A stretch of 64,000 bases of DNA, from the NCBI GenBank assembly GCA_020344315.1, contig CP070820.1:218099-282098 (forward strand), given 5' to 3'. The DNA comes from Candidatus Bathyarchaeum sp. (GTDB lineage: Archaea > Thermoproteota > Bathyarchaeia > Bathyarchaeales > Bathyarchaeaceae). The notes below the pieces were generated by a model. The model was not told where the DNA came from. It was given only the letters and a program-made list of their open reading frames with translations, and did not search any database. How positions within the stretch are numbered: position 1 is the first letter of the stretch; every line of letters begins with the position of its first letter. Made by a program: the position numbers and the translations under genes. Below are positions 9,247 through 23,144 of this stretch, one piece after another.

Positions 9247-10404
9247 TCAAAAATGTTCTGGGTTATCTGCGAATTCCCAATCTTCGGAGGTCTCTGGTTC
9301 ATTCCATGTGCTTCCTCGCGTTGCCAGATTAACTACTAGGAGAATCACCAGCAAGAAGCTCAGTATGATCACTATCATCAGCAAGTCAGCGGGTATGACT
9401 ACAAGTCTGAATGTGCTGCTGGCTGCACTACTGTAGTCATCGTCCCCAACCCATGTGGCTTTGATAGAGTATATTCCGCCGGGAGGAGACTGCCATGTGT
9501 GGGAGTACTCTCCCTTGGAATCAGTTACAACCGTTGTCAGCAAAGTTAAGGGAGAACCCATTGAACTGACGTATAACGTGATTGATTCTCCTGACAAAGA
9601 AGGTGAAAGTGACCCGCTTATCTCTACATCGTTTTGTGCAACAACAAAATTCGTGGAAAGCGACATGTGAAGTGCCGAGGAATCAGGGATAATGTAGCTG
9701 GATGAAACCTGTCCCGGAGCTGTCTCTTCATAATTCCCAAGGGATATTATTTTTGCTGCTGCTCTCTGAAGAACTTCTGGGCATTCGCCGACGCGCCATC
9801 CCTTCTCCCAATTACCACCCGTAGTCTCGGCTACATAGAATTTCTTTCCTTGGTGTCTATAAAAATAAAGAGTGGACCGAGCGTCCTTTGGGCTTTCTGG
9901 CAGATGAACTCCCAAAAGCATGTGGTCGTGCCACTCAAGGTAGAGAAGGACTACGTCAAGTCCACCCGCCTTCATTATTGAGGCTGCCAGTATAGATAAG
10001 AGGTCGCAGTCACCTTCATTTTCAACAATGGTTTCTACAGGATATTTTTGTGGATCGCTCTCTACATATTCAATCTGATGTACTAACATGAGAACGCCGT
10101 TGGCAAAGTCCTCTTCGTTGTTGTAGATACTCCACAGGTCGTCCGCGATGGGTTCCAGAGCATCGGGGGTTACGAATCTGGAGAAATCGGAATAGTAGAG
10201 GGTGTGGTCTCTGCTGCTGTAATTCGCGTAGAGTGCTTCAGTTACTGAAACCCTTAAGCGATAGTTTATGGAGCCGTCTGGACTATCTAGAAGTTTGTAT
10301 GTGCATTCGTGAGCGGCGGCATAACAGCTGTTAAAGAGGAAGAGCAGTAGCAAAATGAAGAGAGTGGCGCAAAATATCTTCTGGCGCCTTGATGGTGAAG
10401 ACAT
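9247..10404 (-). CDS. Membrane-anchored transglutaminase-like protein with Ig-like domain
   Basis: 385 aa surface protein. Signal peptide at residues ~9-30 (FCATLFILLLLFLFNSCYA). A transglutaminase/cysteine-protease-like core has catalytic-type Cys in NEGDCDLLSILAASIMKAGG and His in WHDHMLLGVHLP. It is followed by an Ig-like beta-sandwich (VSGSLSP-type strands to YSIKATWVGDDDYSSAAS) and a C-terminal membrane helix (about 343-362) with a short acidic cytoplasmic tail. The active core therefore faces outside. The third catalytic residue (Asp/Asn) is not obvious; VAETTGGNWEKGW may carry it. Substrate unknown; roles in peptide cleavage or cross-linking are typical of the superfamily. Confidence 0.75.
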   Translation of the reverse strand: MSSPSRRQKIFCATLFILLLLFLFNSCYAAAHECTYKLLDSPDGSINYRLRVSVTEALYANYSSRDHTLYYSDFSRFVTPDALEPIADDLWSIYNNEEDFANGVLMLVHQIEYVESDPQKYPVETIVENEGDCDLLSILAASIMKAGGLDVVLLYLEWHDHMLLGVHLPESPKDARSTLYFYRHQGKKFYVAETTGGNWEKGWRVGECPEVLQRAAAKIISLGNYEETAPGQVSSSYIIPDSSALHMSLSTNFVVAQNDVEISGSLSPSLSGESITLYVSSMGSPLTLLTTVVTDSKGEYSHTWQSPPGGIYSIKATWVGDDDYSSAASSTFRLVVIPADLLMIVIILSFLLVILLVVNLATRGSTWNEPETSEDWEFADNPEHF

Positions 10405-10850: not shown

Positions 10851-12410
10851 ATGGTGTTTGACTTGAATGCACACACGCACAAAAGAGCCTCACTGATAAT
10901 CGTGATTTCTCTTCTGGTCCTTTCAACATTATCGATTCTCTCGATGCAATCATGCCCAGTTAGCGCCCAAACTTCAGACGCAGTCCTCACCGGCACAATC
11001 TACGATAGCGGAGTGGACACTGATGACGATGGACTCTTCAATTTCTTAGAAATCGGAGTTCAAATTAACGTTTCCACCGCAGGAACATATGATGTGGATG
11101 TGACGGACCTTTACGATGCAGATTACAACCTCATCGACCTCTCGAACAGGAGTTCCAAGTACTTCGATGTGGGCATTCATGTTTTCGACATCTACCTAGA
11201 TGGCGAGGTCATCTACAACTCTGGCATCAATCCTACCTCAGTTGCCCTCATCGACCTCTACACCGACACCGAAGACCCAATTAGCACCGAACATGACATT
11301 CCCCTCTCAGAGGACTACACCTACACCGACTTCCAGACCAAGCCCGTTATAATCGACTACAAATTCAATGAGATAGAACGAGAGATAATCTTAGGTCATG
11401 GAAAAAGCATTCGCATCACAAACATCTACACCATAACCAACCTTGGAGACAACATACTTAATATTGAATTCGGCATCCCCGACGATGCCTCCAACATCAA
11501 GTTGCGGGACGAGATGGGTAATCTTGAGGTGTCAGAGGGATTCAAAACGATAACAGTGAATCTTAGAGAAAATTTGTATACAAATCAAACGGTGATGCTT
11601 TATGTTAGTTATTATCTTCCATGGGAAACCTACGTCACTCCGCAGAATGGAGTTAACTACAGCTTAGATTTTACCTTCTATGAAGAATTCGATTGGACGA
11701 TAGGAGAGCTAACTGTCTCCATAATTCTTCCTGAAGGCGCTGAGTTCCAGTCCTCTAATCCTAGCGATTATCTCAGCGTCCAAAAAGGCGGTCTTAAAGA
11801 CACCGTGACCTTTGCTTTCTCCGATGTGACCCCGGAGGACGATCTCAATTTTGAGATCAGTTATAGGTATCTTATGTTCTGGTCTTCTTTCTACCCTACT
11901 ATATGGGTGGGAGTCTTGGTTGTTATTGTGTCCGCCGTTGCTTTTCTCTGGAAAGCTCCTGCACCCGTTGCTGCTCCGATAATTCCGGTTCCACCGGAGA
12001 ATATCAGGAGATTCGTTGATGTCTATGAAGAAAAAGCAAGGATTAAGTCAGAGCTTGAATCCATGGAGGAGCGGTTACGGAAGGGAAAAATTTCTAGACG
12101 CAGATTCAAGATTCGGAAAAGAATGCTGGATGGTCGTCTCTCCACGATTTCTAGGGATCTCTCTTCTCTTCATGAGAAGATACGGGTTGCTGGTCACAAA
12201 TATGCAAACATGATGAGACAGATTGAGGTGGCTGAAAACAATCTTGAAGGCGCGGTGAGGGACATCCAACGAGTCAAAGCTAGATACAGGCGCGGTGAGG
12301 TATCTAAGGGTGCGTATGGAAAGCTTATGGACGAATACAATCGCAGAAGCGAAGAGGCTGAGGCAACGATTGATGGTGTTCTTCTGAGGCTCAGAGAGGA
12401 AATCCGTTAG
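10851..12410 (+). CDS. Membrane protein with large extracytoplasmic domain and cytoplasmic coiled coil
   Basis: 519 aa. Signal/anchor at about residues 13-38. An acidic extracytoplasmic region begins with a calcium-loop-like DSGVDTDDDGLFNFLEIG and contains beta-rich domains. One membrane segment lies near residues 345-365 (FYPTIWVGVLVVIVSAVAFLW), then a Pro-rich hinge and a charged cytoplasmic tail of about 140 residues predicted as coiled coil (KARIKSELESMEERLRKGKI, RRSEEAEATIDGVLLRLREE). The topology suggests transmission of an outside signal or anchoring to a cytoplasmic partner. No named family recognised. The first 140 residues resemble other archaeal surface proteins of the same start pattern. 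Confidence 0.65.
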   Translation: MVFDLNAHTHKRASLIIVISLLVLSTLSILSMQSCPVSAQTSDAVLTGTIYDSGVDTDDDGLFNFLEIGVQINVSTAGTYDVDVTDLYDADYNLIDLSNRSSKYFDVGIHVFDIYLDGEVIYNSGINPTSVALIDLYTDTEDPISTEHDIPLSEDYTYTDFQTKPVIIDYKFNEIEREIILGHGKSIRITNIYTITNLGDNILNIEFGIPDDASNIKLRDEMGNLEVSEGFKTITVNLRENLYTNQTVMLYVSYYLPWETYVTPQNGVNYSLDFTFYEEFDWTIGELTVSIILPEGAEFQSSNPSDYLSVQKGGLKDTVTFAFSDVTPEDDLNFEISYRYLMFWSSFYPTIWVGVLVVIVSAVAFLWKAPAPVAAPIIPVPPENIRRFVDVYEEKARIKSELESMEERLRKGKISRRRFKIRKRMLDGRLSTISRDLSSLHEKIRVAGHKYANMMRQIEVAENNLEGAVRDIQRVKARYRRGEVSKGAYGKLMDEYNRRSEEAEATIDGVLLRLREEIR

Positions 12411-13557: not shown

Positions 13558-15630
13558 ATGAGCGGAAAAATGGCAAAACGAAAGTTGATGTTTCTCCTCG
13601 GATCTATTCTCATACTGTCAATAGTTGCAGCATATATCTATTCAAACTGGAGTACAGACGTTACCTCTACTACACCGGAAGAGAGTACAACCGAGGGGCC
13701 AACAACTGAAGAACCAACAACTGAGGAGCCAACGACTAGGGAACCAACAACTGAAGAGCCCACAACCGAAGAACCAACAACCGAAGAGCCCACAACCGAG
13801 GAGCCAACGACTGAGGAGCCAACAACCGAGGAACCGACAACTGAGGAACCGACGACTGAGGAACCGACCACTGAAATGCCAACAACTGAGGAGCCAACGA
13901 CTGGGGAACCAACAACTGAGGAGCCACCATCCGAGGAGCCGACAACCAGTGACCCTTTAGACATTATGATAGCTGAAGCGGTAGGAAATAATGAAGACGA
14001 CCATGAAGATGAAGAAGATTATATATGGGATAGTTCCGATGTCATTACAATAACATTGAATATCGATTCAATAACCGTCGATGAAGAAAACGGCACCATA
14101 ATTGATGAAACAACGGTAACCATTACATCTGCAGGTACTTACAACATAAGCGGTACTTTGGTAGATGGACAGATAATCGTAGACACTAATGATGAAGAGA
14201 CTGTAAGACTTGTCTTAAACGGGGTCAACATCAGTAGCACTGCAAGCGCCCCTATTTATGTTGAGGATGCAGCAATAACCGTCATTGTCCTTGCCGAAAA
14301 TACAGAAAATTATCTAACAGACAACGTGAACAATGCAGAATACGGTACACTTGCTAGTAGAGATGACCTTACAATCTACGGTAATGGGACACTCACAGTT
14401 AGTGGAAATGCTAACGATGCTATTCGAAGTAATGACGGACTTGTCATAAAAAGCGGGAATATTAAGGTAACTTCAGTCGATGACGGGATTAGGGGTAAAA
14501 ATTATCTAGTGATTAAAGGTGGAAACATCACGGTAAATTCCGTTGGCGACGGCTTGAAATCGGATAATGCCGAAGAAGAAAACAGAGGGTATATCTCTAT
14601 TGAAGATGGTATGATAAATATTACTTCCACCAAAGGGGACGCTGTTACTGCCCAAACTGATCTATTGGTAACCGGCGGGACATTCGCTTTGACAAGCGGC
14701 GGCGGAAGCGCTGTAACACCTAATGATCTATCCACTAAAGGGCTAAAAGCCGGTATCTGTATAGTTATAGATGATGGAGATTTTACCATCAACTCTTCTG
14801 ATGATGCAATTCACTCAGATCACATGATCCTCATAAATAACGGTACATACCATATTGCTACAGGGGATGACGGCATACACGCAGACACATCTTTGGAAAT
14901 CAATGACGGAACATTTGTCATATCACAATCCTATGAAGGGCTAGAGAGTAACATGAAAATCACCATTAACAATGGCCATTTTCAGATTAATGCAATTGAT
15001 GACGGAATTAATGTAGCCGCAGGGAATGGGGGCGATTTTGTACCTGGAGGAGGCTGGGGCGGCGGAGGCGGTGGCGGTTTTGGACCTCCGGGTGAATTCT
15101 ACATATACATCAACGGCGGCTTTATTTACATTGAATCAGATTGTGACGGTCTTGACTCAGACGGATATATTGAGATGAGTGGCGGTGTTTTGATTATTGA
15201 CGGTCCGGTCCCAGGGTCATTCCCTAACGCTGCGATAGATTATGGTATGGGCTCATTAAACGTCACCGGCGGGATATTAGTGGGGGTAGGAAGCTCCGAT
15301 ATGACACAGGGTCCAAGCACAATGTCTACTCAATATTCCTTAATCGTGAACTTTGGCTCACCGCAGTCAGCGAATACATTAGTGAATATCCAAACTGCTT
15401 TAGGTGAGACAGTTCTTACGTTTAGTCCCGCGAAAGCATATCAATCGATAGTCTTCTCTTCTCCTGAGCTTACAACTGTTTCATATGACCTATATCTGGG
15501 AGGAAGCTCCACAGGTACTCTCTCATACGGCATATATGAAGATGGAACATACAGCCCAGGAACCAAATATACCAGCTTTACTATTTCCGAGGTTGTAACG
15601 ACTATAGGTAGCAGCGCATTTTCGTGGTAA
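13558..15630 (+). CDS. Cthe_2159-type carbohydrate-binding beta-helix protein with Thr-Pro-Glu linker
   Basis: 690 aa. N-terminal membrane anchor at about residues 9-28. Residues ~42-137 are a TTEEP/TTREP/TTGEP repeat, a flexible spacer and a likely O-glycosylation target. Residues ~160-690 match the Cthe_2159 family (calcium-dependent polygalacturonate-binding right-handed beta-helix): many repeats of the DDGI/DDAIHSD/GDGLKSDN type, each starting a coil. A Gly-rich turn (GGWGGGGGGGFGPPG) interrupts the helix near 500. Anchored at the N-terminus, the binding domain would project outward. It is convergent with the VTC-CotH-DUF4956 genes, the same partners it has in Bacteria, which argues for shared function and transfer as a set. 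Confidence 0.85.
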   Translation: MSGKMAKRKLMFLLGSILILSIVAAYIYSNWSTDVTSTTPEESTTEGPTTEEPTTEEPTTREPTTEEPTTEEPTTEEPTTEEPTTEEPTTEEPTTEEPTTEEPTTEMPTTEEPTTGEPTTEEPPSEEPTTSDPLDIMIAEAVGNNEDDHEDEEDYIWDSSDVITITLNIDSITVDEENGTIIDETTVTITSAGTYNISGTLVDGQIIVDTNDEETVRLVLNGVNISSTASAPIYVEDAAITVIVLAENTENYLTDNVNNAEYGTLASRDDLTIYGNGTLTVSGNANDAIRSNDGLVIKSGNIKVTSVDDGIRGKNYLVIKGGNITVNSVGDGLKSDNAEEENRGYISIEDGMINITSTKGDAVTAQTDLLVTGGTFALTSGGGSAVTPNDLSTKGLKAGICIVIDDGDFTINSSDDAIHSDHMILINNGTYHIATGDDGIHADTSLEINDGTFVISQSYEGLESNMKITINNGHFQINAIDDGINVAAGNGGDFVPGGGWGGGGGGGFGPPGEFYIYINGGFIYIESDCDGLDSDGYIEMSGGVLIIDGPVPGSFPNAAIDYGMGSLNVTGGILVGVGSSDMTQGPSTMSTQYSLIVNFGSPQSANTLVNIQTALGETVLTFSPAKAYQSIVFSSPELTTVSYDLYLGGSSTGTLSYGIYEDGTYSPGTKYTSFTISEVVTTIGSSAFSW
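13684..13950 (+). repeat. 15-bp tandem repeat coding for the TTEEP linker
   Basis: About 17 imperfect units of GAACCAACAACTGAG type; variants are mostly synonymous (CCA/CCG/CCC, GAA/GAG, ACA/ACG), with occasional changes to R, G, M or S. The synonymous divergence indicates selection on the peptide. The same tract creates long open frames on other strands that are not genes. Confidence 0.85.
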
Positions 15631-15683
15631 TGACTAAAGCAAATGGTGACACTCTTTCACTCTTCTAGTTTGCAGCAAAAACA

Positions 15684-16391
15684 TCAAACCAGAACACCTG
15701 CTGACCCCCTACACATAGCAAACTTTCCAATAGCAGACCGCGGACGAATCCCGCCCGAAAACAAACCCCGAACAACCTCAGGAAGAACACTGCCAAACTT
15801 AACCTCCAAAATCACACCCGGTTCCTCACGAATCCCAACAGTAGAAGCATCATGATCAAAAAGAGAAACAGGTCCCAAACCAGTACGCAGTCCAATATCA
15901 AAAGTAACCCTTAGATCTCCAACAGGATGAACATACGCCTCACGAAGATATTCCACTACTACTACAGGACGTAGAAGATTTCGACGGCACTCCAAATAGA
16001 AACACCTGAGAAGTTGACTTTCCGAATCAGCTAAGAAAGAAACGTCCCCGCCTATAATACGATCGGCTTCATCCCTACTTAGCACCGCACTCTCCTTAAA
16101 CACGTAATAATTAAACTTACTCTTACGCTCAAACTTAACAAAATCATCGCATAAATCATAGATTCGCATACGATATTTCTTCCGTATAGGAACCCCAGCC
16201 ATCTTATCGAAAAAAGCAGTATTCCTAAAATCATCAAAATAAAGACTCCGAACATGATAACGACCATCAGGCCCAGCATGAGAATCCAACTTAAGAACCG
16301 CCCCCAACTTCCTGCTAAGAATCCGATACTGCATAAAATTAAGATGATACTTCAGTTCATGCCTCAGACGACGCCCCTCAAGATCAAACAT
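15684..16391 (-). CDS. VTC-domain protein (polyphosphate polymerase-like)
   Basis: CYTH/VTC-type tunnel protein. Conserved basic and acidic strands appear in order: RHELKYHL at the N-terminus, YHVRSLYFDD, RKKYRMRIYD, FVKFERKSKF, VVVEYLREAY, LRVTFDIGLRTG, and LEVKFGSVLPEVV near the C-terminus. In yeast Vtc4 these residues bind nucleotide and polyphosphate. There is no SPX or membrane domain, so it would be cytoplasmic unless complexed with the DUF4956 protein. A longer reading starts at 16412, but AGGTGAT just before the ATG at 16391, and the CotH stop at 16396, favour the shorter form. Last gene of the DUF4956-CotH-VTC operon. Confidence 0.85.
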   Translation of the reverse strand: MFDLEGRRLRHELKYHLNFMQYRILSRKLGAVLKLDSHAGPDGRYHVRSLYFDDFRNTAFFDKMAGVPIRKKYRMRIYDLCDDFVKFERKSKFNYYVFKESAVLSRDEADRIIGGDVSFLADSESQLLRCFYLECRRNLLRPVVVVEYLREAYVHPVGDLRVTFDIGLRTGLGPVSLFDHDASTVGIREEPGVILEVKFGSVLPEVVRGLFSGGIRPRSAIGKFAMCRGSAGVLV

Positions 16392-16395
16392 AAAA

Positions 16396-19300
16396 TCACC
16401 TACGCCTAGCATTCACCTTGATGCCAACAACAAAAAGTACACATATAAGCCCAACCACACCAACAAGTAACAGAACTGACCAAAGCGAAGACTCAGCATC
16501 AAACTGCCTCATATTATTCCCCCAACCAGGAGTCGCCGATAGCAGATGTTCCCAATTTTCTGCTCCATCGGGTAGTCTACCATACGAAACATCTTGAAGC
16601 TGTTTGGTATAGGTTATTGAATCTATCAAAGTTATGCCATCAGAAGCGAAAATGGCAATTGCCTCTCCATTTGCGCGAAGACCAAAACCGCAATGAAGCC
16701 CATCTGAATCAGAGGCGTTGTCAGCCCAGATCAGCAAAAAGCCGCCTGCCTCGATTATGGTGTCGTCTGGAAATTGCCACTTAGTAGGGTTCCCCAAGTT
16801 ATCAGTTAAATACATGCCGCTGAGGTTAATCGACTCGTTGCCGCCATTGTGGAGTTCAATCCAATCAGGACTATTGCCGTCAGGTCCCGCAATGGTGGCG
16901 CCGTTATCGGCCATAAACTCGTTAATAACCAAACCATCAGGAATGTCACCGACGTGAGTGGGGTCACCAGACGTCACAGGTTCACCCATTTCGTTGGGCA
17001 AGCCAGGGGTCGGTGTTATGTAGTGCCAGCTTGAGGCGCCGTCAGGCAGTCTACCATACGAGACATCATCAGGTTGCTCAGTGAAAGTGATTGAATCAAT
17101 TAGCGTTTCAGCGTCGCTTGCGAATAGGCATACAGCTTCACCGCTTGCATTAAGGCCGAAGCTGGCATGCAACAAACCCTCATCAGGAGAATTGTCTGCC
17201 CAAACAACCAGAAAACCACCAGCGTCTATAACAGTGCCCGATGGAAATTGCCAAGCATCAGGATTTGCTAAGTCGTCAGAGAGGTACATGCCGCTGAGGT
17301 TAACCGATTCGGTACCGCCATTGTATAGTTCAATCCAATCAGGATAATTGCCGTCAGGACCCGCAACAACTGCATCATTGTTCGCCATGAACTCGTTAAT
17401 GAACAGATCCTCAGGAATGACAAGGGGGGTAAGTTCATCGGGGGTCACACGTTCACCTAAGGTATTTGATAAATTAGGAGTCGGTGTTATGTAGTCCCAA
17501 GTTGAAGCTCCGTCCGGCAGTCGACCATATGAAATATCATCATACTGTTCAGCAAAGGCGATTGAATCAATTAGGGTCTCAGCATCATCCGCCAGTAGAC
17601 ATATAAATTCCCCTTCTGTGTTAAGATTGAAATTCATATACCCCGGTTTAGGGGTAGAAGAATTGTCTCCCCAAACAACTAGAAAACCTCCGGCTTCTAT
17701 GACAGTGCCCGATGGAAATTGCCACTTTGGATTTGTCAAGTCATCAGATAAGTACATGCCGCCAAGATCGATTGATTCGGTACCGCCATTGTAGAGTTCA
17801 ATCCAATCAGGATAAGTTCCATCAGGACCCGCAACAGCAGCATCATTGTTCGCCATAAACTCGTTAATAACCAAATCATTAGGAATGCTTGCGGATTGAT
17901 TAGGCTTAGCAGGTGTTACAATTTCACTCATTATCTGCCATAGACCTTCACCATCGGGAAAACGGCCAAAAGAAACGTCAGCATTAAGTGCAGGATAAGA
18001 AATGCTGTCAACTAACACATAACTTGAGTCGTCATCCATGTACAAGTACATGTTGCCACCGCCCGAATTGAGGCTAAACGGGGCATGATCGGCTCCTTCA
18101 CTGGGTTCGTTGTCGAGCCACAGCAATAGGAACTCTCCATCGTCAAGATTCTGTGCGGGCAGTTCCCACTTGTTTGGAACTCCTGGATCATCCGTCAGAA
18201 ATATGTTGCTAGTGTTCACCAAGCCGGGTCCAAGATTGTAGATTTCTACCCACTGATCGTAGTCGCCTTCATTGTCGGCGATTGTACCTTGGTTCACAGA
18301 CATCAAATCGTTTAATTGCAGATCGGTTTTTTTCGCAAACGCGTTAAGCTGAGTGTTAACATAGGCTGCTCGTCTCGCCACAAAATCGATAGTTGCTTCA
18401 AGTTCAGGCTCGAAAGCCTCTGGGTTTGTCCAAAGGTTAGGGTCATTGTAGACTTCGTCGCGGATAAGGTCTGCCAGCTCTTGAATTCTAGCACTTATAG
18501 AATCTGGGTTGAAGCCTTCTCTAAGCATCTGGGCGAGTGCACGAAGATAGGTGGTATTGTAAGATTCTACTGCCATAACATTCTTTATTAAAGTTAGAGT
18601 GTCATTTGTTGCTCTACCTCCACCCCCGAAACCAAATCCGGTCATTGTGGACGGTGGAAACACTCCATATTCTACTGGGTCTGCACCAGACCCCATCATC
18701 CCGAATCCGAATTTCCCGAATGCTAAGTTGGCATCCCATAACAGATGAGTGAATTGCCCAGTATTGCTTCGATCGTAGAGGTAATAATTGCGTGCGTTCC
18801 CAATATACGAGTCCAAACTGACGAAGAGGTCAAGAAGCGCTATGGAATACAGTGCTGATTCAACATCAAAGATGTGCCCAAGTTTATCGGGCAATTCGGA
18901 TATAGGTGTGTTTGTCAGGACATTTGTTAACCAAATCAGGTCTGACCAATCGTTTATCTCTTCATTGTTCTTGAGTTCATATAATCCGTAGTACGATTCA
19001 GGGTCTGGACCAAGATACGAAAGAGTGGCTCGGCGCTCAGCCTTGTAAAGGTTGCCATCCTCGTCATCCTCAAAACGGCTTTCAACAAAAGTATTGTCAA
19101 TGTGTTCCATCGCCAAGTAGAGACCATAATATTCATCGTTAATATACAGTCGCGTATACACGGAACGGGGCGTAGGCACATAATTGCCGGCAAAGTCCAT
19201 GAACAGTTTCTCACGAATCAGAGATGGGTCAAGCGCACCATTGTTTAGATTCAATTTTTTGAGACCAAAAAAGGTTGTTTCTTCACCATCTCCCGCATCA

Positions 19301-19755
19301 TACATGTTAAAATCAATCCGGAAAGGCTTCTTGATCTTCTCATCCTCACCCCCGCCACCTCCAAAAAAACCGCCACCACCGCCGAAATTGAAGCCAAATG
19401 TAGACAAACCTTTGAAACGTGCCCCAACAGGGTCTATTTCAATACCATGAGAAACAAAACGAGCGGGAAAATAGGGATCCGCTGTGTTGCGATTACTATC
19501 ATGTGCAGCATATAGAGTATCATACCAGTCAGGGTCATCAAAATGCAGGCGAATCTCATGAATGTAACTATCATCAAAAAAAACATCTGCCTCATTAATC
19601 ACATTGCCCTCACCGGCCCAAGGACCCGCTTCCGCACTGATAGTTTGAACAACGCCAAATAGTGTACTAGCTAACAAAAGTACAGAATATAGAACTACCA
19701 ACGCTAATCTTGATTTATTTAGGTGCAACCTAGTTGTATCCCCTCTTTTCACCAT
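16396..19755 (-). CDS. CotH-kinase-family surface protein with four lamin-tail domains
   Basis: 1119 aa. Signal peptide ~16-42, then a CotH kinase-like domain (~45-470). Family segments include KKPFRIDFNMYD, GLKKLNLNNGALDPSLIREK, YGLYLAMEHIDNTFVESRF, GNLYKAE and the metal-binding-type HLLWDANLAFGKFG. A Gly-rich run (FNFGGGGGFFGGGGG) is inserted in the N-lobe. One divergent (~478-615) and three nearly identical lamin-tail/LTD beta-sandwiches (starting ~625, ~783, ~940; period ~157 aa) follow, each with INEFMA.N and DWIELYNGG. A C-terminal membrane helix and RRR tail anchor it. CotH of Bacillus is an atypical secreted protein kinase; kinase activity here is inference. DUF4956 lies upstream and VTC downstream. 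Confidence 0.87.
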   Translation of the reverse strand: MVKRGDTTRLHLNKSRLALVVLYSVLLLASTLFGVVQTISAEAGPWAGEGNVINEADVFFDDSYIHEIRLHFDDPDWYDTLYAAHDSNRNTADPYFPARFVSHGIEIDPVGARFKGLSTFGFNFGGGGGFFGGGGGEDEKIKKPFRIDFNMYDAGDGEETTFFGLKKLNLNNGALDPSLIREKLFMDFAGNYVPTPRSVYTRLYINDEYYGLYLAMEHIDNTFVESRFEDDEDGNLYKAERRATLSYLGPDPESYYGLYELKNNEEINDWSDLIWLTNVLTNTPISELPDKLGHIFDVESALYSIALLDLFVSLDSYIGNARNYYLYDRSNTGQFTHLLWDANLAFGKFGFGMMGSGADPVEYGVFPPSTMTGFGFGGGGRATNDTLTLIKNVMAVESYNTTYLRALAQMLREGFNPDSISARIQELADLIRDEVYNDPNLWTNPEAFEPELEATIDFVARRAAYVNTQLNAFAKKTDLQLNDLMSVNQGTIADNEGDYDQWVEIYNLGPGLVNTSNIFLTDDPGVPNKWELPAQNLDDGEFLLLWLDNEPSEGADHAPFSLNSGGGNMYLYMDDDSSYVLVDSISYPALNADVSFGRFPDGEGLWQIMSEIVTPAKPNQSASIPNDLVINEFMANNDAAVAGPDGTYPDWIELYNGGTESIDLGGMYLSDDLTNPKWQFPSGTVIEAGGFLVVWGDNSSTPKPGYMNFNLNTEGEFICLLADDAETLIDSIAFAEQYDDISYGRLPDGASTWDYITPTPNLSNTLGERVTPDELTPLVIPEDLFINEFMANNDAVVAGPDGNYPDWIELYNGGTESVNLSGMYLSDDLANPDAWQFPSGTVIDAGGFLVVWADNSPDEGLLHASFGLNASGEAVCLFASDAETLIDSITFTEQPDDVSYGRLPDGASSWHYITPTPGLPNEMGEPVTSGDPTHVGDIPDGLVINEFMADNGATIAGPDGNSPDWIELHNGGNESINLSGMYLTDNLGNPTKWQFPDDTIIEAGGFLLIWADNASDSDGLHCGFGLRANGEAIAIFASDGITLIDSITYTKQLQDVSYGRLPDGAENWEHLLSATPGWGNNMRQFDAESSLWSVLLLVGVVGLICVLFVVGIKVNARRR
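16525..17950 (-). repeat. Three near-identical ~475-bp tandem repeats (lamin-tail domains)
   Basis: The three C-terminal LTD units share long blocks at DNA level, for example the segments coding for GTVI-AGGFLVVW, SDD/TDN-LxNP and DVSYGRLPDGA. The high similarity suggests recent duplication or gene conversion. The first LTD of the protein is much more divergent. Confidence 0.75.
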
Positions 19756-19795
19756 CTAACCTACCGTCCACACCCAATTGAGGAAACAGCAGCAG

Positions 19796-20467
19796 CTAAG
19801 CAACGTCAGCGTTGTAGCTGACAAGCGCTGCGTCCCTTACACCCTTAATCTTCAGCAGATCATCCACTTTCGATGCATCTTTTGCTTTCATTCGAACCTC
19901 AAGCATCAGCTCCACTCCAGCAGAGGTTACAGTTCGAGATCTAAGCTTGTTTTTTGGAAGGGCTTCTTGGATAGCTGCTTCAGCTTCAGTTGCATAGTGG
20001 ATCACCAGCAGATATGGGTCGTTGCTACGTAGGTTTGCTCGGTTCAACACGAACAAAAATAATCCGATTATCGGGGAACCCACTATGGCTACCATGTATA
20101 GTCCTGCACCACTGATAATTCCGACTGCGATAGCCCAGAACGTGAACACGATATCGGCTGGGTCTTTGATTGCTGTTCGGAAGCGCACTATGCTTAGGGC
20201 ACCTACCATTCCTAAGGAGAGAGCGATGTTGGAGCTGATTGGCAAGGTGATGAGTGTTACCACAAGTGAGGTTAGCACTAGCCCAACGTTGAAGTTTCGG
20301 GTGTAGATTACTCCTCTAAAGCATTTACGGTACATGTAGAAGATGAACAGGGTCACCATGAAGGAGACAATCAGGCTCAACAATACACGCTCGACTGTGA
20401 GTGCTTGGTATGCGTTGGGTGGATTCAAGAAGTCGGACAGCAAATCGTTTAAATCGTTTAAATCCAT
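19796..20467 (-). CDS. DUF4956 membrane protein
   Basis: 223 aa with four or so membrane helices in residues 25-150 and a soluble C-terminal alpha/beta domain (~155-223). The family core is visible: GALSIVRFRTAIKDPADIVF and WAIAVGIISGAGLYMVAIVG. DUF4956 proteins are regularly encoded beside VTC-domain and CotH genes in Bacteria, and may form a membrane channel or transport partner for a VTC product. That role is inference from gene neighbourhood. It is the first gene of the leftward operon, with a TATA box positioned for a leaderless mRNA. Confidence 0.85.
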   Translation of the reverse strand: MDLNDLNDLLSDFLNPPNAYQALTVERVLLSLIVSFMVTLFIFYMYRKCFRGVIYTRNFNVGLVLTSLVVTLITLPISSNIALSLGMVGALSIVRFRTAIKDPADIVFTFWAIAVGIISGAGLYMVAIVGSPIIGLFLFVLNRANLRSNDPYLLVIHYATEAEAAIQEALPKNKLRSRTVTSAGVELMLEVRMKAKDASKVDDLLKIKGVRDAALVSYNADVA

Positions 20468-20715: not shown

Positions 20716-21456
20716 CTAACTGCTCCATTTCAGTTGCCACCAGAGTTTTATCACTTGCCAAGCCATGTCGAAAGAATCTTCGATGAGTCTTACTTTCGTT
20801 TCATGTCCACTCGTCCATTCCACAGGAATCTCCTTTATCGTGTAGCCTTTGCGAAATGCTCTGACAATGAGTTCTGTGTCCCAGAACCAGTGGCTAGCTG
20901 CTACTTCGTCAAGTAATTGCATGAGAGGTTCTCGCCTGAAAGCTTTAAACCCGCACTGATGATCCTTAACTTTAGAGCCTAACATTGCCCGAACCATAAA
21001 GTTGTAGATTATTGAAAACAGATGCCTCGTGCGACTTCTTTCAACTCTGCTTTTAGAGAGCATCCTCGAACCAACAGCCAAATCATATTCTTCCTCTTCA
21101 ATAGCCTTGACAAGAGATTCCAATTGTCCCACGTTTGTGGCTAAATCCACATCCATGTAAACGAGGATTTTGCCACTAGCTTTTTTGAAGGCATTTTTTA
21201 GGGCTGCTCCTCTTCCAAGCCGTTTTTCTATATGCAGGTGCTTTACGAGTGGGTACCTTTCAGAAAGCAGGGCTGCAACTTTGTCGGTTCCATCCGTACT
21301 ACCATCCTCGGCAATTATTATTTCATACGAATGCGCAAATTCCTCGAGGGCTTTCATTACTTTTGTCACTGCATTCTCTAACGTGTTCGCTTCATTGTAA
21401 GCTGGAAGCCCTATTGAAAACTCCACCATATGCCTCTGACTCGTCTCATCTTTCAT
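20716..21456 (-). CDS. Family 2 glycosyltransferase, polyprenyl-phosphate mannosyltransferase-like
   Basis: GT-A fold enzyme of the dolichol-phosphate mannose synthase type. GLPAYNEANTLENAV and AEDGSTDGTDKV bind the nucleotide sugar, and MDVDLATN holds the DxD metal motif. KDHQCGFKAFRRE and WFWDTELIVRAFRKGY are conserved in this subgroup. No C-terminal membrane helices, so it acts on the cytoplasmic membrane face. Its ATG overlaps the last base of the PMT stop (TAATG), so the two are coupled: this enzyme probably makes the lipid-linked sugar that PMT transfers. An alternative start at M11 (MVEFSIGLP) is possible. Confidence 0.85.
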   Translation of the reverse strand: MKDETSQRHMVEFSIGLPAYNEANTLENAVTKVMKALEEFAHSYEIIIAEDGSTDGTDKVAALLSERYPLVKHLHIEKRLGRGAALKNAFKKASGKILVYMDVDLATNVGQLESLVKAIEEEEYDLAVGSRMLSKSRVERSRTRHLFSIIYNFMVRAMLGSKVKDHQCGFKAFRREPLMQLLDEVAASHWFWDTELIVRAFRKGYTIKEIPVEWTSGHETKVRLIEDSFDMAWQVIKLWWQLKWSS

Positions 21457-23144
21457 TAATGAAACACCCAGCTTTCAAGCCACTTTATACTTTCCATCCA
21501 CGAGGAAGACACCGGCATCCCAGAGGTGACAGGATAAAAAAGCCCGAAAAGAACCACAACTACTGCAAAATAGGCTAACGTTGCTGCTTTTCCCCATTTG
21601 CTGCTCCAATATTTGTTCAGAAAATACGCTGTAGCCAAACAGAGAAAGGCTACACTAGCATAAAAGTGGTAGAGCAAGGTGTATCTCGAAATTAATGCGT
21701 AAGGCAGCCACTGGGAAAAGAACAAGACCGTGATGAAAATGCAGGCGAAATCCTTTCTTCTTATGGCGCGTTCAACAGCCAAGAATACGAACGCGAAACC
21801 GACCCACCAAACCGCAGGATTCCCCATAGCCACGATTATCGACACAATATTGCCAGGCAAGTGTGCTCGATAAAGCAGCACAGGCCTTAGAGTAAAAGGC
21901 CAAGTCCACCATCCAGACGCAAAAGGATGAGTAGCTTTCAGCCCTGAATGATAACCAAACATGGATCCCTGCAAATTAAACACATTCACCAAGCTGCGCC
22001 CTGCAAGCATGTCTGGAATATAGGTCAAGAAGTAAACAAACACAGCCAGCGCTATGAAACAAAACAGCAGAAAAAATGGGCGTGCAAAGAACGCGTTAAT
22101 CTTGGCTGATAATATATCTTTTAGCTTTATAACCTCTCTAAGCCTGAGCACTAGAAGAATGGCTAGCTGACCTAGGAAACAAAAGAGTACAATCCATTTT
22201 GTTGAAATCCCGAACGCGAAGAACAATATTGCCAGAAACAATGGAAGAGCTGGAGCTTTCCATCCGTTCTTGAGTACGCCTTTAACGTAGATCAAGAAAA
22301 AGAGTTGCGATGCTAACGAGAAGAAGGCTACATAAACATCAACAGTTGCCATTCGCCCCATCGCAAAATTCATGAAATCGAATGTCAATAGAAAAGATGA
22401 AGTGAAAGCGCCGATCCACGTTCCAAACAACTCTTTTCCTACGAGATAAATTAAAGCTATCATCATCGTGGCGAATACAACGCCCATTATACGCCATCCA
22501 AACGGGTTATAGCCAAAAATCAAAATCCCCGATGTAAGGATCAATTTTCCAAGAGGCGGGTGAGTCCATTCATAAGGGCGCTGAGAGTTCACGTAGTTCT
22601 CCGCTGTTCTGACAAAGTATTTTTCATCGAAATGTATTTCCGACATATAAGTTGGGGGACACTGAACCAAGCTCTGTTCATCAATCAACTTAGACAAGTT
22701 TGGGTCAGTAGTTCCTTCACCCATAACCGCATTGATTGCAATTTTCTGGTTATCTAAGCTTAGAACCGCCACCTCAGCGACTTCGATAGAAGCCTGCTGG
22801 AAGTTAAACCGTATATAGCGGGCGTCTCTGTTGATGTTGAATTTACTCCAACGATAGTAGGCGAACGAACCATGGGTCGGAATCTCAAGCTTTCGGGGAT
22901 AACTCCAGTTTTCAGGAGAGCCAGTGTAAACCGTAACGTTAGCAGAGCCAAATTTAACCAAGAGGTAAACGCTGTGGACGCTCTCAAATCCGCCGAGGTC
23001 AATGTAAAAGCTTCTATCTTCGGTTGCCTGCCAAGTAGTAAGCGGAGTTTTGGTCATTCCCAGATTCCATGTTGCGACTGAGAAGAAAACTATAGAAAGC
23101 ACAATTATCGTCAACAAGTCTCGCTTATCAATCTGCATTTTCAC
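21456..23144 (-). CDS. PMT-family protein O-mannosyltransferase (GT39)
   Basis: 562 aa polytopic membrane glycosyltransferase. The first extracytoplasmic loop, after the N-terminal helix, begins with a ~120-residue beta-rich segment (YIDLGGFESVHSVYLLVKFG, RYIRFNFQQASIEVAEVAVL). It resembles a discoidin/galactose-binding sandwich and is not part of standard PMT. It is followed by the catalytic Asp-Glu motif (SEIHFDEKYFVRTAENYV) and EWTHPPLGKL, both diagnostic of PMT proteins. About 9-10 membrane helices follow, with conserved GYHSGLKATHPF and WWTWPF. It transfers sugar from polyprenyl phosphate to Ser/Thr outside the cell. Operon with the GT2 gene; nearby surface proteins with Thr-rich linkers are plausible substrates. 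Confidence 0.87.
   Translation of the reverse strand: MKMQIDKRDLLTIIVLSIVFFSVATWNLGMTKTPLTTWQATEDRSFYIDLGGFESVHSVYLLVKFGSANVTVYTGSPENWSYPRKLEIPTHGSFAYYRWSKFNINRDARYIRFNFQQASIEVAEVAVLSLDNQKIAINAVMGEGTTDPNLSKLIDEQSLVQCPPTYMSEIHFDEKYFVRTAENYVNSQRPYEWTHPPLGKLILTSGILIFGYNPFGWRIMGVVFATMMIALIYLVGKELFGTWIGAFTSSFLLTFDFMNFAMGRMATVDVYVAFFSLASQLFFLIYVKGVLKNGWKAPALPLFLAILFFAFGISTKWIVLFCFLGQLAILLVLRLREVIKLKDILSAKINAFFARPFFLLFCFIALAVFVYFLTYIPDMLAGRSLVNVFNLQGSMFGYHSGLKATHPFASGWWTWPFTLRPVLLYRAHLPGNIVSIIVAMGNPAVWWVGFAFVFLAVERAIRRKDFACIFITVLFFSQWLPYALISRYTLLYHFYASVAFLCLATAYFLNKYWSSKWGKAATLAYFAVVVVLFGLFYPVTSGMPVSSSWMESIKWLESWVFH

What the first reader, a model, noticed from the sequence alone, without database searches (positions are those of the whole stretch)
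13558..20467. CotH kinase, VTC, DUF4956 and Cthe_2159 surface locus in an archaeon
Four genes that co-occur in Firmicutes and other Bacteria (DUF4956 membrane protein, CotH kinase/lamin-tail, VTC polyphosphate-polymerase-like, Cthe_2159 carbohydrate binder) are together here in an archaeal genome. Two of the proteins carry Gly-rich runs and are membrane-anchored outside; one has a Thr-rich spacer. Hypothesis: VTC makes polyphosphate or a related polymer, DUF4956 moves it across the membrane, and CotH uses it or ATP to modify the surface proteins. Family calls come from sequence motifs; the system-level role is inference.
Basis: partly seen in the sequence, partly recalled or inferred. Interest (0 to 1): 0.82.

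Follow-up and report, generated by a model that had tools for sequence, protein, structure and literature searches.

The report
Archaeal polyphosphate-polymerase surface gene cassette
An archaeon of the Bathyarchaeota carries a small gene cassette, also known from some bacteria, that probably makes a phosphate polymer at the cell membrane and displays polymer-binding proteins outside; the pair at its heart (DUF4956 plus a VTC polymerase) is always found together, whereas the protein kinase that caught the eye is an optional extra.

Summary
The four families are really there, all above their Pfam cut-offs: Cthe_2159 (13558-15630, +) and an operon-like minus-strand run of DUF4956 (20467-19796), CotH kinase + 4 lamin-tail repeats + membrane anchor (19755-16396) and VTC (16412-15684). 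The genome belongs with Candidatus Bathyarchaeota. In 251 genomes of its class, VTC and DUF4956 occur in exactly the same 14 genomes, adjacent in all; Cthe_2159 occurs in 12, all among those 14; CotH in only 3. The lamin-tail anchor protein lacks the kinase domain in 6 of the 9 loci that have it, including a congener. So the core is DUF4956-VTC, not CotH. VTC resembles yeast Vtc4 and keeps eight known tunnel residues; the host genome has no PPK1/PPK2. Best reading: a two-protein, membrane-coupled polyphosphate synthase with surface partners; product and export are inferred. CotH acting on the cluster's own surface proteins is weakly supported: the two other CotH carriers have no Cthe_2159. Bacteria have the same parts, published as Pel accessory genes; the archaeal carriers have no PelG, so a published statement that this synteny is not found outside Pel loci does not hold. 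New variant of a known kind.

The parts
19796..20467 (-). DUF4956 membrane protein (223 aa): hydrophobic helices followed by a ferredoxin/ACT-like C-terminal domain, MgtC-like
   Evidence: Pfam 48.3 bits; AF2 model with 5 helices then an alpha/beta domain, pLDDT 66.7; C-terminal part resembles the MgtC C-terminal domain 2lqj, weak E 0.014
16396..19755 (-). CotH kinase + four lamin-tail repeats + C-terminal membrane anchor (1119 aa)
   Evidence: Pfam CotH 202 bits, LTD 207 bits; hydrophobic segments at residues 18-36 and 1094-1112
18358..19347 (-). CotH kinase domain (residues 137-466), present in only 3 of 14 related loci
   Evidence: phmmer to B. cereus CotH 5jd9 E 3.7e-15
16516..18321 (-). 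lamin-tail (LTD) repeat region, about residues 479-1080, the part shared with kinase-less relatives
   Evidence: the L040 680-aa protein aligns to residues 479-1119 at 53% with no CotH part
15684..16412 (-). VTC / polyphosphate polymerase domain protein (242 aa), soluble
   Evidence: Pfam 102 bits; profile hit to yeast Vtc4 3g3q E 1.6e-7; AF2 model pLDDT 84.7, best PDB match Vtc4 3g3r E 4.7e-12
13558..15630 (+). Cthe_2159 beta-helix carbohydrate-binding protein with N-terminal membrane anchor (690 aa), convergent to the operon
   Evidence: Pfam 323 bits; phmmer to the Cthe_2159 structure 4peu E 7.8e-36; hydrophobic segment residues 10-28
13687..13946 (+). Thr/Glu/Pro-rich spacer, 15-nt tandem repeat x 17.3
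   Evidence: composition
20716..23144 (-). upstream GT2 (20716-21456) and PMT-type O-mannosyltransferase (21456-23144); neighbours, not conserved parts of the cassette
   Evidence: Pfam; no homologues in the flanks of the other loci

Best explanation
The locus is a Bathyarchaeal copy of a cassette shared with Bacteria. Its core is a pair: VTC, a cytosolic tunnel enzyme that makes polyphosphate from ATP, and DUF4956, a membrane protein that docks it and most likely carries or senses the growing polymer, giving a two-gene counterpart of the eukaryotic VTC complex, in which tunnel and membrane domains are fused. The polymer would be delivered to or retained at the cell surface, where the membrane-anchored lamin-tail protein and the Cthe_2159 beta-helix protein bind polyanionic or glycan polymers. 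CotH is an optional kinase domain on the lamin-tail anchor. Shown: families, gene order, co-inheritance, Vtc4-like fold and tunnel residues, modular presence of CotH, absence of PPK1/PPK2 and PelG in the host assembly. Inferred: polyphosphate as product, export through or with DUF4956, binding of the polymer by the surface proteins.
For: VTC and DUF4956 in exactly the same 14 of 251 genomes and adjacent in all. Vtc4 residues K200, R264, R266, K281, K294, R361, R373, E426 have counterparts in the window protein, K21, R81, R83, K97, K106, R157, R168, E203, invariant or nearly so in 15 proteins. Best structural match is Vtc4 with an ATP analogue, ahead of triphosphatase-type tunnel enzymes. VTC has no membrane segment while DUF4956 does, so together they restore the layout of eukaryotic VTC. 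DUF4956 has an invariant basic stretch R95-F-R97-T and K101 in 17 homologues. No PPK1 or PPK2 in the window genome; 10 of 14 carriers lack PPK1. Cthe_2159 above cut-off occurs only in carriers (12 of 14) and belongs to a family with a solved beta-helix. CotH confined to 3 carriers.
Against: No activity data. Tunnel enzymes of this fold include triphosphatases, so the product is not proven by residues alone. The DUF4956 model has modest confidence and its C-terminal domain resembles MgtC/ACT regulatory domains, which fits a sensor as well as a channel. In Streptococcus intermedius deletion of the VTC homologue SIR_1593 gave no aggregation phenotype while DUF4956 and CotH deletions did (PMC12345266), so the parts need not act as one machine there. 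Co-occurrence counts are not corrected for relatedness: all 14 come from one order (3 families), plus G097 from elsewhere in the phylum. The window genome is 88% complete, so absences in it are not absolute.
Confidence: 0.5

Rival explanations
1. The cassette is an accessory of exopolysaccharide or surface glycan assembly: VTC, DUF4956 and CotH tune or decorate a secreted glycan rather than deliver polyphosphate. In the window the glycan machinery would be the upstream GT2 and O-mannosyltransferase.
For: In bacteria the cassette adjoins Pel operons (PMC7112168), sits inside an EPS-type cluster in Pseudobutyrivibrio and next to a GT2 and HEAT protein in Planococcus and C. perfringens NELoc-2; S. 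intermedius DUF4956 and CotH mutants change Pel amount and aggregation.
Against: No PelG in any of 15 carrier genomes; GT2 and PMT are not neighbours in the other Bathyarchaeal loci and no glycan gene recurs in those flanks.
Confidence: 0.25
2. DUF4956-VTC is a phosphate or ATP status sensor (MgtC-like membrane part plus ACT domain plus a tunnel enzyme that binds or hydrolyses short polyphosphates), not an exporter.
For: MgtC-family similarity and MgtC-like C-terminal domain; tunnel fold shared with triphosphatases.
Against: Vtc4 residues kept and Vtc4 is the best match; a sensor does not explain the tight link to outward-facing Cthe_2159 and lamin-tail proteins.
Confidence: 0.15
3. One reading: extracellular CotH uses exported polyphosphate or ATP to phosphorylate the cluster's own surface proteins, notably the Thr-rich Cthe_2159 spacer.
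For: The CotH domain keeps D315 and D341, aligned with Asp residues of bacterial CotH, and lies on the same protein as the outer anchor; an outside kinase needs a phosphodonor.
Against: Only 1 of 14 loci has both CotH and Cthe_2159; G199 and G229 have CotH and no Cthe_2159; spacers rich in Thr/Ser occur without CotH.
Confidence: 0.08

Closest known systems
CotH - polyphosphate polymerase (PPP) - DUF4956 - DUF4832 accessory genes of Gram-positive Pel clusters (PMC7112168; SIR_1592-1594 in PMC12345266)
   Same: Same three families adjacent; DUF4956 as MgtC-like membrane part plus ACT domain; CotH secreted
   Different: No PelG in the carrier genomes; CotH optional and on one protein with lamin-tail repeats and a C-terminal anchor; Cthe_2159 is a regular partner; archaeal host; no DUF4832 among the Pfam-scanned neighbours
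Eukaryotic VTC complex, Vtc4 polyphosphate polymerase (3g3q, 3g3r, 8i6v)
   Same: Tunnel fold and the eight checked tunnel residues
   Different: No SPX domain, no fused membrane domain; the membrane part would be a separate, different protein (DUF4956)
Bacillus CotH spore-coat kinase (5jd9)
   Same: CotH domain, E 3.7e-15, conserved Asp pair
   Different: On a 1119-aa lamin-tail anchor protein in an archaeon; CotB/CotG-like substrates were not searched for
Cthe_2159 (4peu) beta-helix carbohydrate binder
   Same: Domain at 323 bits, N-terminal anchor
   Different: Longer protein with a Thr-rich spacer and a second part with a Gly-rich loop; ligand unknown here
Paenibacillus cellulosilyticus VTC-DUF4956-Cthe_2159 run (L075) and gut scaffold MT838813 LTD/CotH-DUF4956-VTC run (L079)
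   Same: Same gene sets in bacterial DNA; L075 order equals Bathyarchaeal L033
   Different: VTC proteins 25% and 44% identical to the window's

Membership tests
Vtc4-type polyphosphate polymerase (PF09359) | Family HMM and tunnel fold | tested here: met
   102 bits vs 23; best PDB fold match 3g3r E 4.7e-12
Vtc4-type polyphosphate polymerase (PF09359) | Tunnel residues K200 R264 R266 K281 K294 R361 R373 E426 | tested here: met
   mapped, conserved; the list of residues is from my own knowledge of the Vtc4 structure work; E426 rests on a low-scoring piece of the alignment
Eukaryotic VTC complex | SPX domain and membrane domain fused to the polymerase | tested here: not met
   242-aa protein with only the VTC domain and no hydrophobic segment
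Vtc4-type polyphosphate polymerase (PF09359) | ATP-dependent polyphosphate synthesis | not testable with these tools
   needs an enzyme assay
CotH kinase (PF08757) | Family HMM | tested here: met
   202 bits vs 23.8
CotH kinase (PF08757) | Catalytic and metal-binding Asp residues | tested here: met
   D315 and D341 invariant in 5 CotH proteins; spacing to the first Asp differs from 5jd9 by a short insertion, so equivalence of D315 is by alignment only
CotH kinase (PF08757) | Protein phosphorylation | not testable with these tools
   needs an assay
Pel-associated CotH-PPP-DUF4956 cassette | Three families adjacent | tested here: met
   bacterial examples
Pel-associated CotH-PPP-DUF4956 cassette | Pel biosynthesis genes present | tested here: not met
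   PelG (PF16933) absent from 15 carrier genomes
DUF4956 (PF16316) | Family HMM, membrane helices | tested here: met
   48.3 bits vs 30.6; helices
Cthe_2159 (PF14262) | Family HMM and homology to the solved beta-helix | tested here: met
   323 bits; 4peu E 7.8e-36
Cthe_2159 (PF14262) | Binding of acidic polysaccharide | not testable with these tools
   needs a binding assay

The most novel reading that the evidence does not exclude
DUF4956 and VTC form a prokaryotic polyphosphate synthase-translocase that puts polyphosphate on the archaeal surface, where Cthe_2159 and lamin-tail proteins hold it and, in the few CotH-bearing species, an extracellular kinase draws its phosphate from that polymer instead of ATP.
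Probability: 0.1. Interest if true: 0.85.

Novelty: new variant of a known kind. Interest (0 to 1): 0.5.

Why it matters
It separates the core (DUF4956-VTC) from the optional parts of a cassette so far studied mainly as a helper of Pel in streptococci, shows that it exists without Pel in another domain of life, and gives a small, testable candidate for coupled polyphosphate synthesis and export in organisms without a recognisable PPK. If DUF4956 proves to be the membrane partner of VTC-type polymerases, an unannotated bacterial family gains a function.

Tried and rejected
A single-sequence PDB search for VTC found nothing credible; the profile was needed. The genome-contig scan with a two-sequence DUF4956 alignment chose lineage-specific peptides and returned only 3 Bathyarchaeal loci, so bacterial relatives came from the plasmid and phage collections; the three 'phage' scaffolds look like bacterial DNA (murB in one, pyruvate kinase in another). 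Viral-contig scans gave one further locus and none. Chance clustering rejected. Membership of the GT2/O-mannosyltransferase pair in the cassette rejected because it does not recur. G179's weak VTC match (28 bits) has no partner genes and is not counted. Promoter and terminator scans were at or below chance and of a bacterial type.

Full report
What is there. The window proteins match all four named Pfam families well above the curated cut-offs, and the coordinates are right. On the minus strand DUF4956, the CotH/lamin-tail protein and VTC follow each other with a 40-nt gap and a 17-nt overlap, as in an operon; Cthe_2159 lies on the plus strand, tail to tail with VTC. The genome is a 1.56-Mb single contig, 88% complete. 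Two genomes of the same order contain contigs whose lengths and gene layout equal those of MAG contigs titled Candidatus Bathyarchaeota (7346 and 95767 bases).

How widespread. In an even sample of 251 genomes of the class, VTC is found in 15, of which one (G179, 28 bits) is weak and lone. DUF4956 above cut-off is found in exactly the remaining 14. Cthe_2159 above cut-off is found in 12, all within the 14. CotH is found in 3, all within the 14. In a sample of 121 genomes of the phylum, a more distant member (G097) also has DUF4956 next to VTC at a contig end. These counts are not corrected for relatedness, but physical linkage is further evidence: DUF4956 and VTC are neighbours in all 14.

Anatomy across relatives. 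A lamin-tail protein with C-terminal membrane anchor stands between DUF4956 and VTC in 9 of 14 loci (window, L013, L034, L035, L036, L038, L039, L040, L044). It carries a CotH domain only in the window, L038 and L044. In L040 the protein aligns to window residues 479-1119 at 53% identity, the part after the kinase domain; in the same-genus genome G087 a single lamin-tail repeat plus anchor remains (L013). In the tree of both proteins joined, the CotH-bearing loci and L040 group together (92), with L013 next to them (51), so the kinase domain has been gained or lost within this group. Cthe_2159 is adjacent in 11 loci, usually convergent, and elsewhere in the assembly in G315. No other gene family recurs in the flanks of most loci, so the cassette has clear borders.

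What the parts can do. The VTC profile finds yeast Vtc4 (3g3q, E 1.6e-7). Counting along that alignment gives the Vtc4 residues K200, R264, R266, K281, K294, R361, R373 and, in a short low-scoring piece, E426; the archaeal counterparts K21, R81, R83, K97, K106, R157, R168, E203 are invariant or nearly so. That these are the functional residues of Vtc4 is my own knowledge. The AF2 model (pLDDT 84.7) has Vtc4 bound to an ATP analogue as best PDB match. VTC itself has no hydrophobic segment; DUF4956 has three strong ones by a simple scale and five helices in a model of modest confidence, followed by a ferredoxin/ACT-like domain resembling that of MgtC. The published description of the streptococcal homologue is four membrane segments plus an ACT domain (PMC12345266). 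The stretch R95-F96-R97-T98 and K101 is invariant in 17 DUF4956 proteins, bacterial ones included. The host assembly has neither PPK1 nor PPK2, and 10 of 14 carriers lack PPK1, so VTC is its only recognised polyphosphate polymerase candidate. The CotH domain keeps two Asp residues aligned with bacterial CotH proteins.

Bacterial relatives. Pseudobutyrivibrio has CotH-VTC-DUF4956 inside an exopolysaccharide-type cluster; Planococcus has VTC-DUF4956-CotH followed by a HEAT protein and a glycosyltransferase, much as C. perfringens NELoc-2. Paenibacillus cellulosilyticus has VTC-DUF4956-Cthe_2159, the order seen in the divergent Bathyarchaeal locus L033. A human gut scaffold carries a lamin-tail/CotH protein, DUF4956 and VTC. 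In the trees of VTC and of both proteins joined, this gut sequence groups with the main Bathyarchaeal clade (100), while L033 falls outside it. This suggests at least two transfers between Bacteria and Bathyarchaeota, with direction unresolved by so few bacterial rows.

Literature. The three-gene set is published as accessory genes of Gram-positive Pel clusters (PMC7112168). In S. intermedius, deletion of the DUF4956 and CotH genes altered Pel amount and aggregation, that of the VTC gene is not reported to, and the authors state that they did not find the arrangement outside Pel loci (PMC12345266). Here 15 carrier genomes have no PelG, so the arrangement, or its DUF4956-VTC core, does exist without Pel. 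The library searched holds open-licence papers only, so absence of earlier reports is not proven.

Verdict on mechanism. I favour a membrane-coupled polyphosphate synthase made of VTC and DUF4956, with surface-exposed polymer- or glycan-binding partners (0.5). An accessory role in glycan assembly (0.25) and a phosphate sensor (0.15) are the main rivals. The Thr-rich spacer is a simple 15-nt repeat expansion, and Ser/Thr-rich spacers occur in species without CotH.

Noticed in passing
window 10851-12410 (+): Membrane protein with a Ribophorin I domain match above the Pfam cut-off (32.1 vs 25 bits) followed by a coiled-coil-like region; ribophorin I is best known as an oligosaccharyltransferase subunit of eukaryotes.
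   Followed up: no
window 20716-23144 (-): GT2 (dolichyl-phosphate sugar synthase-like) and PMT-type O-mannosyltransferase directly upstream of DUF4956 on the same strand; could glycosylate Thr-rich spacers, but the pair does not recur at the other loci.
   Followed up: partly
window 9247-10404 (-): Secreted protein with an Ig-like region and a transglutaminase-like look; a homologue lies near the cassette in L036 (4923-6764), and another transglutaminase-like ORF in L013 (12683-13240).
   Followed up: no
L033 9984-13109: A divergent second lineage of the cassette in genome G225 with gene order VTC-DUF4956-Cthe_2159, as in Paenibacillus L075; its congeners carry the common lineage.
   Followed up: partly
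L035 2788-6378: A 1196-aa Cthe_2159 protein with several internal copies of the beta-helix domain.
   Followed up: no
L014 14984-15651: DUF4956 broken by a stop or frameshift in genome G097, at a contig end; may be an assembly error.
   Followed up: no
L078, L079, L080 (phage collection): Scaffolds filed as 'Bacteriophage sp.' carry the cassette and, in two of them, murB or pyruvate kinase; they look like bacterial chromosome.
   Followed up: partly
L077 7518-10227 (Nonomuraea): DUF4956 with a long N-terminal extension (375 aa) directly followed by CotH, without a VTC hit.
   Followed up: no
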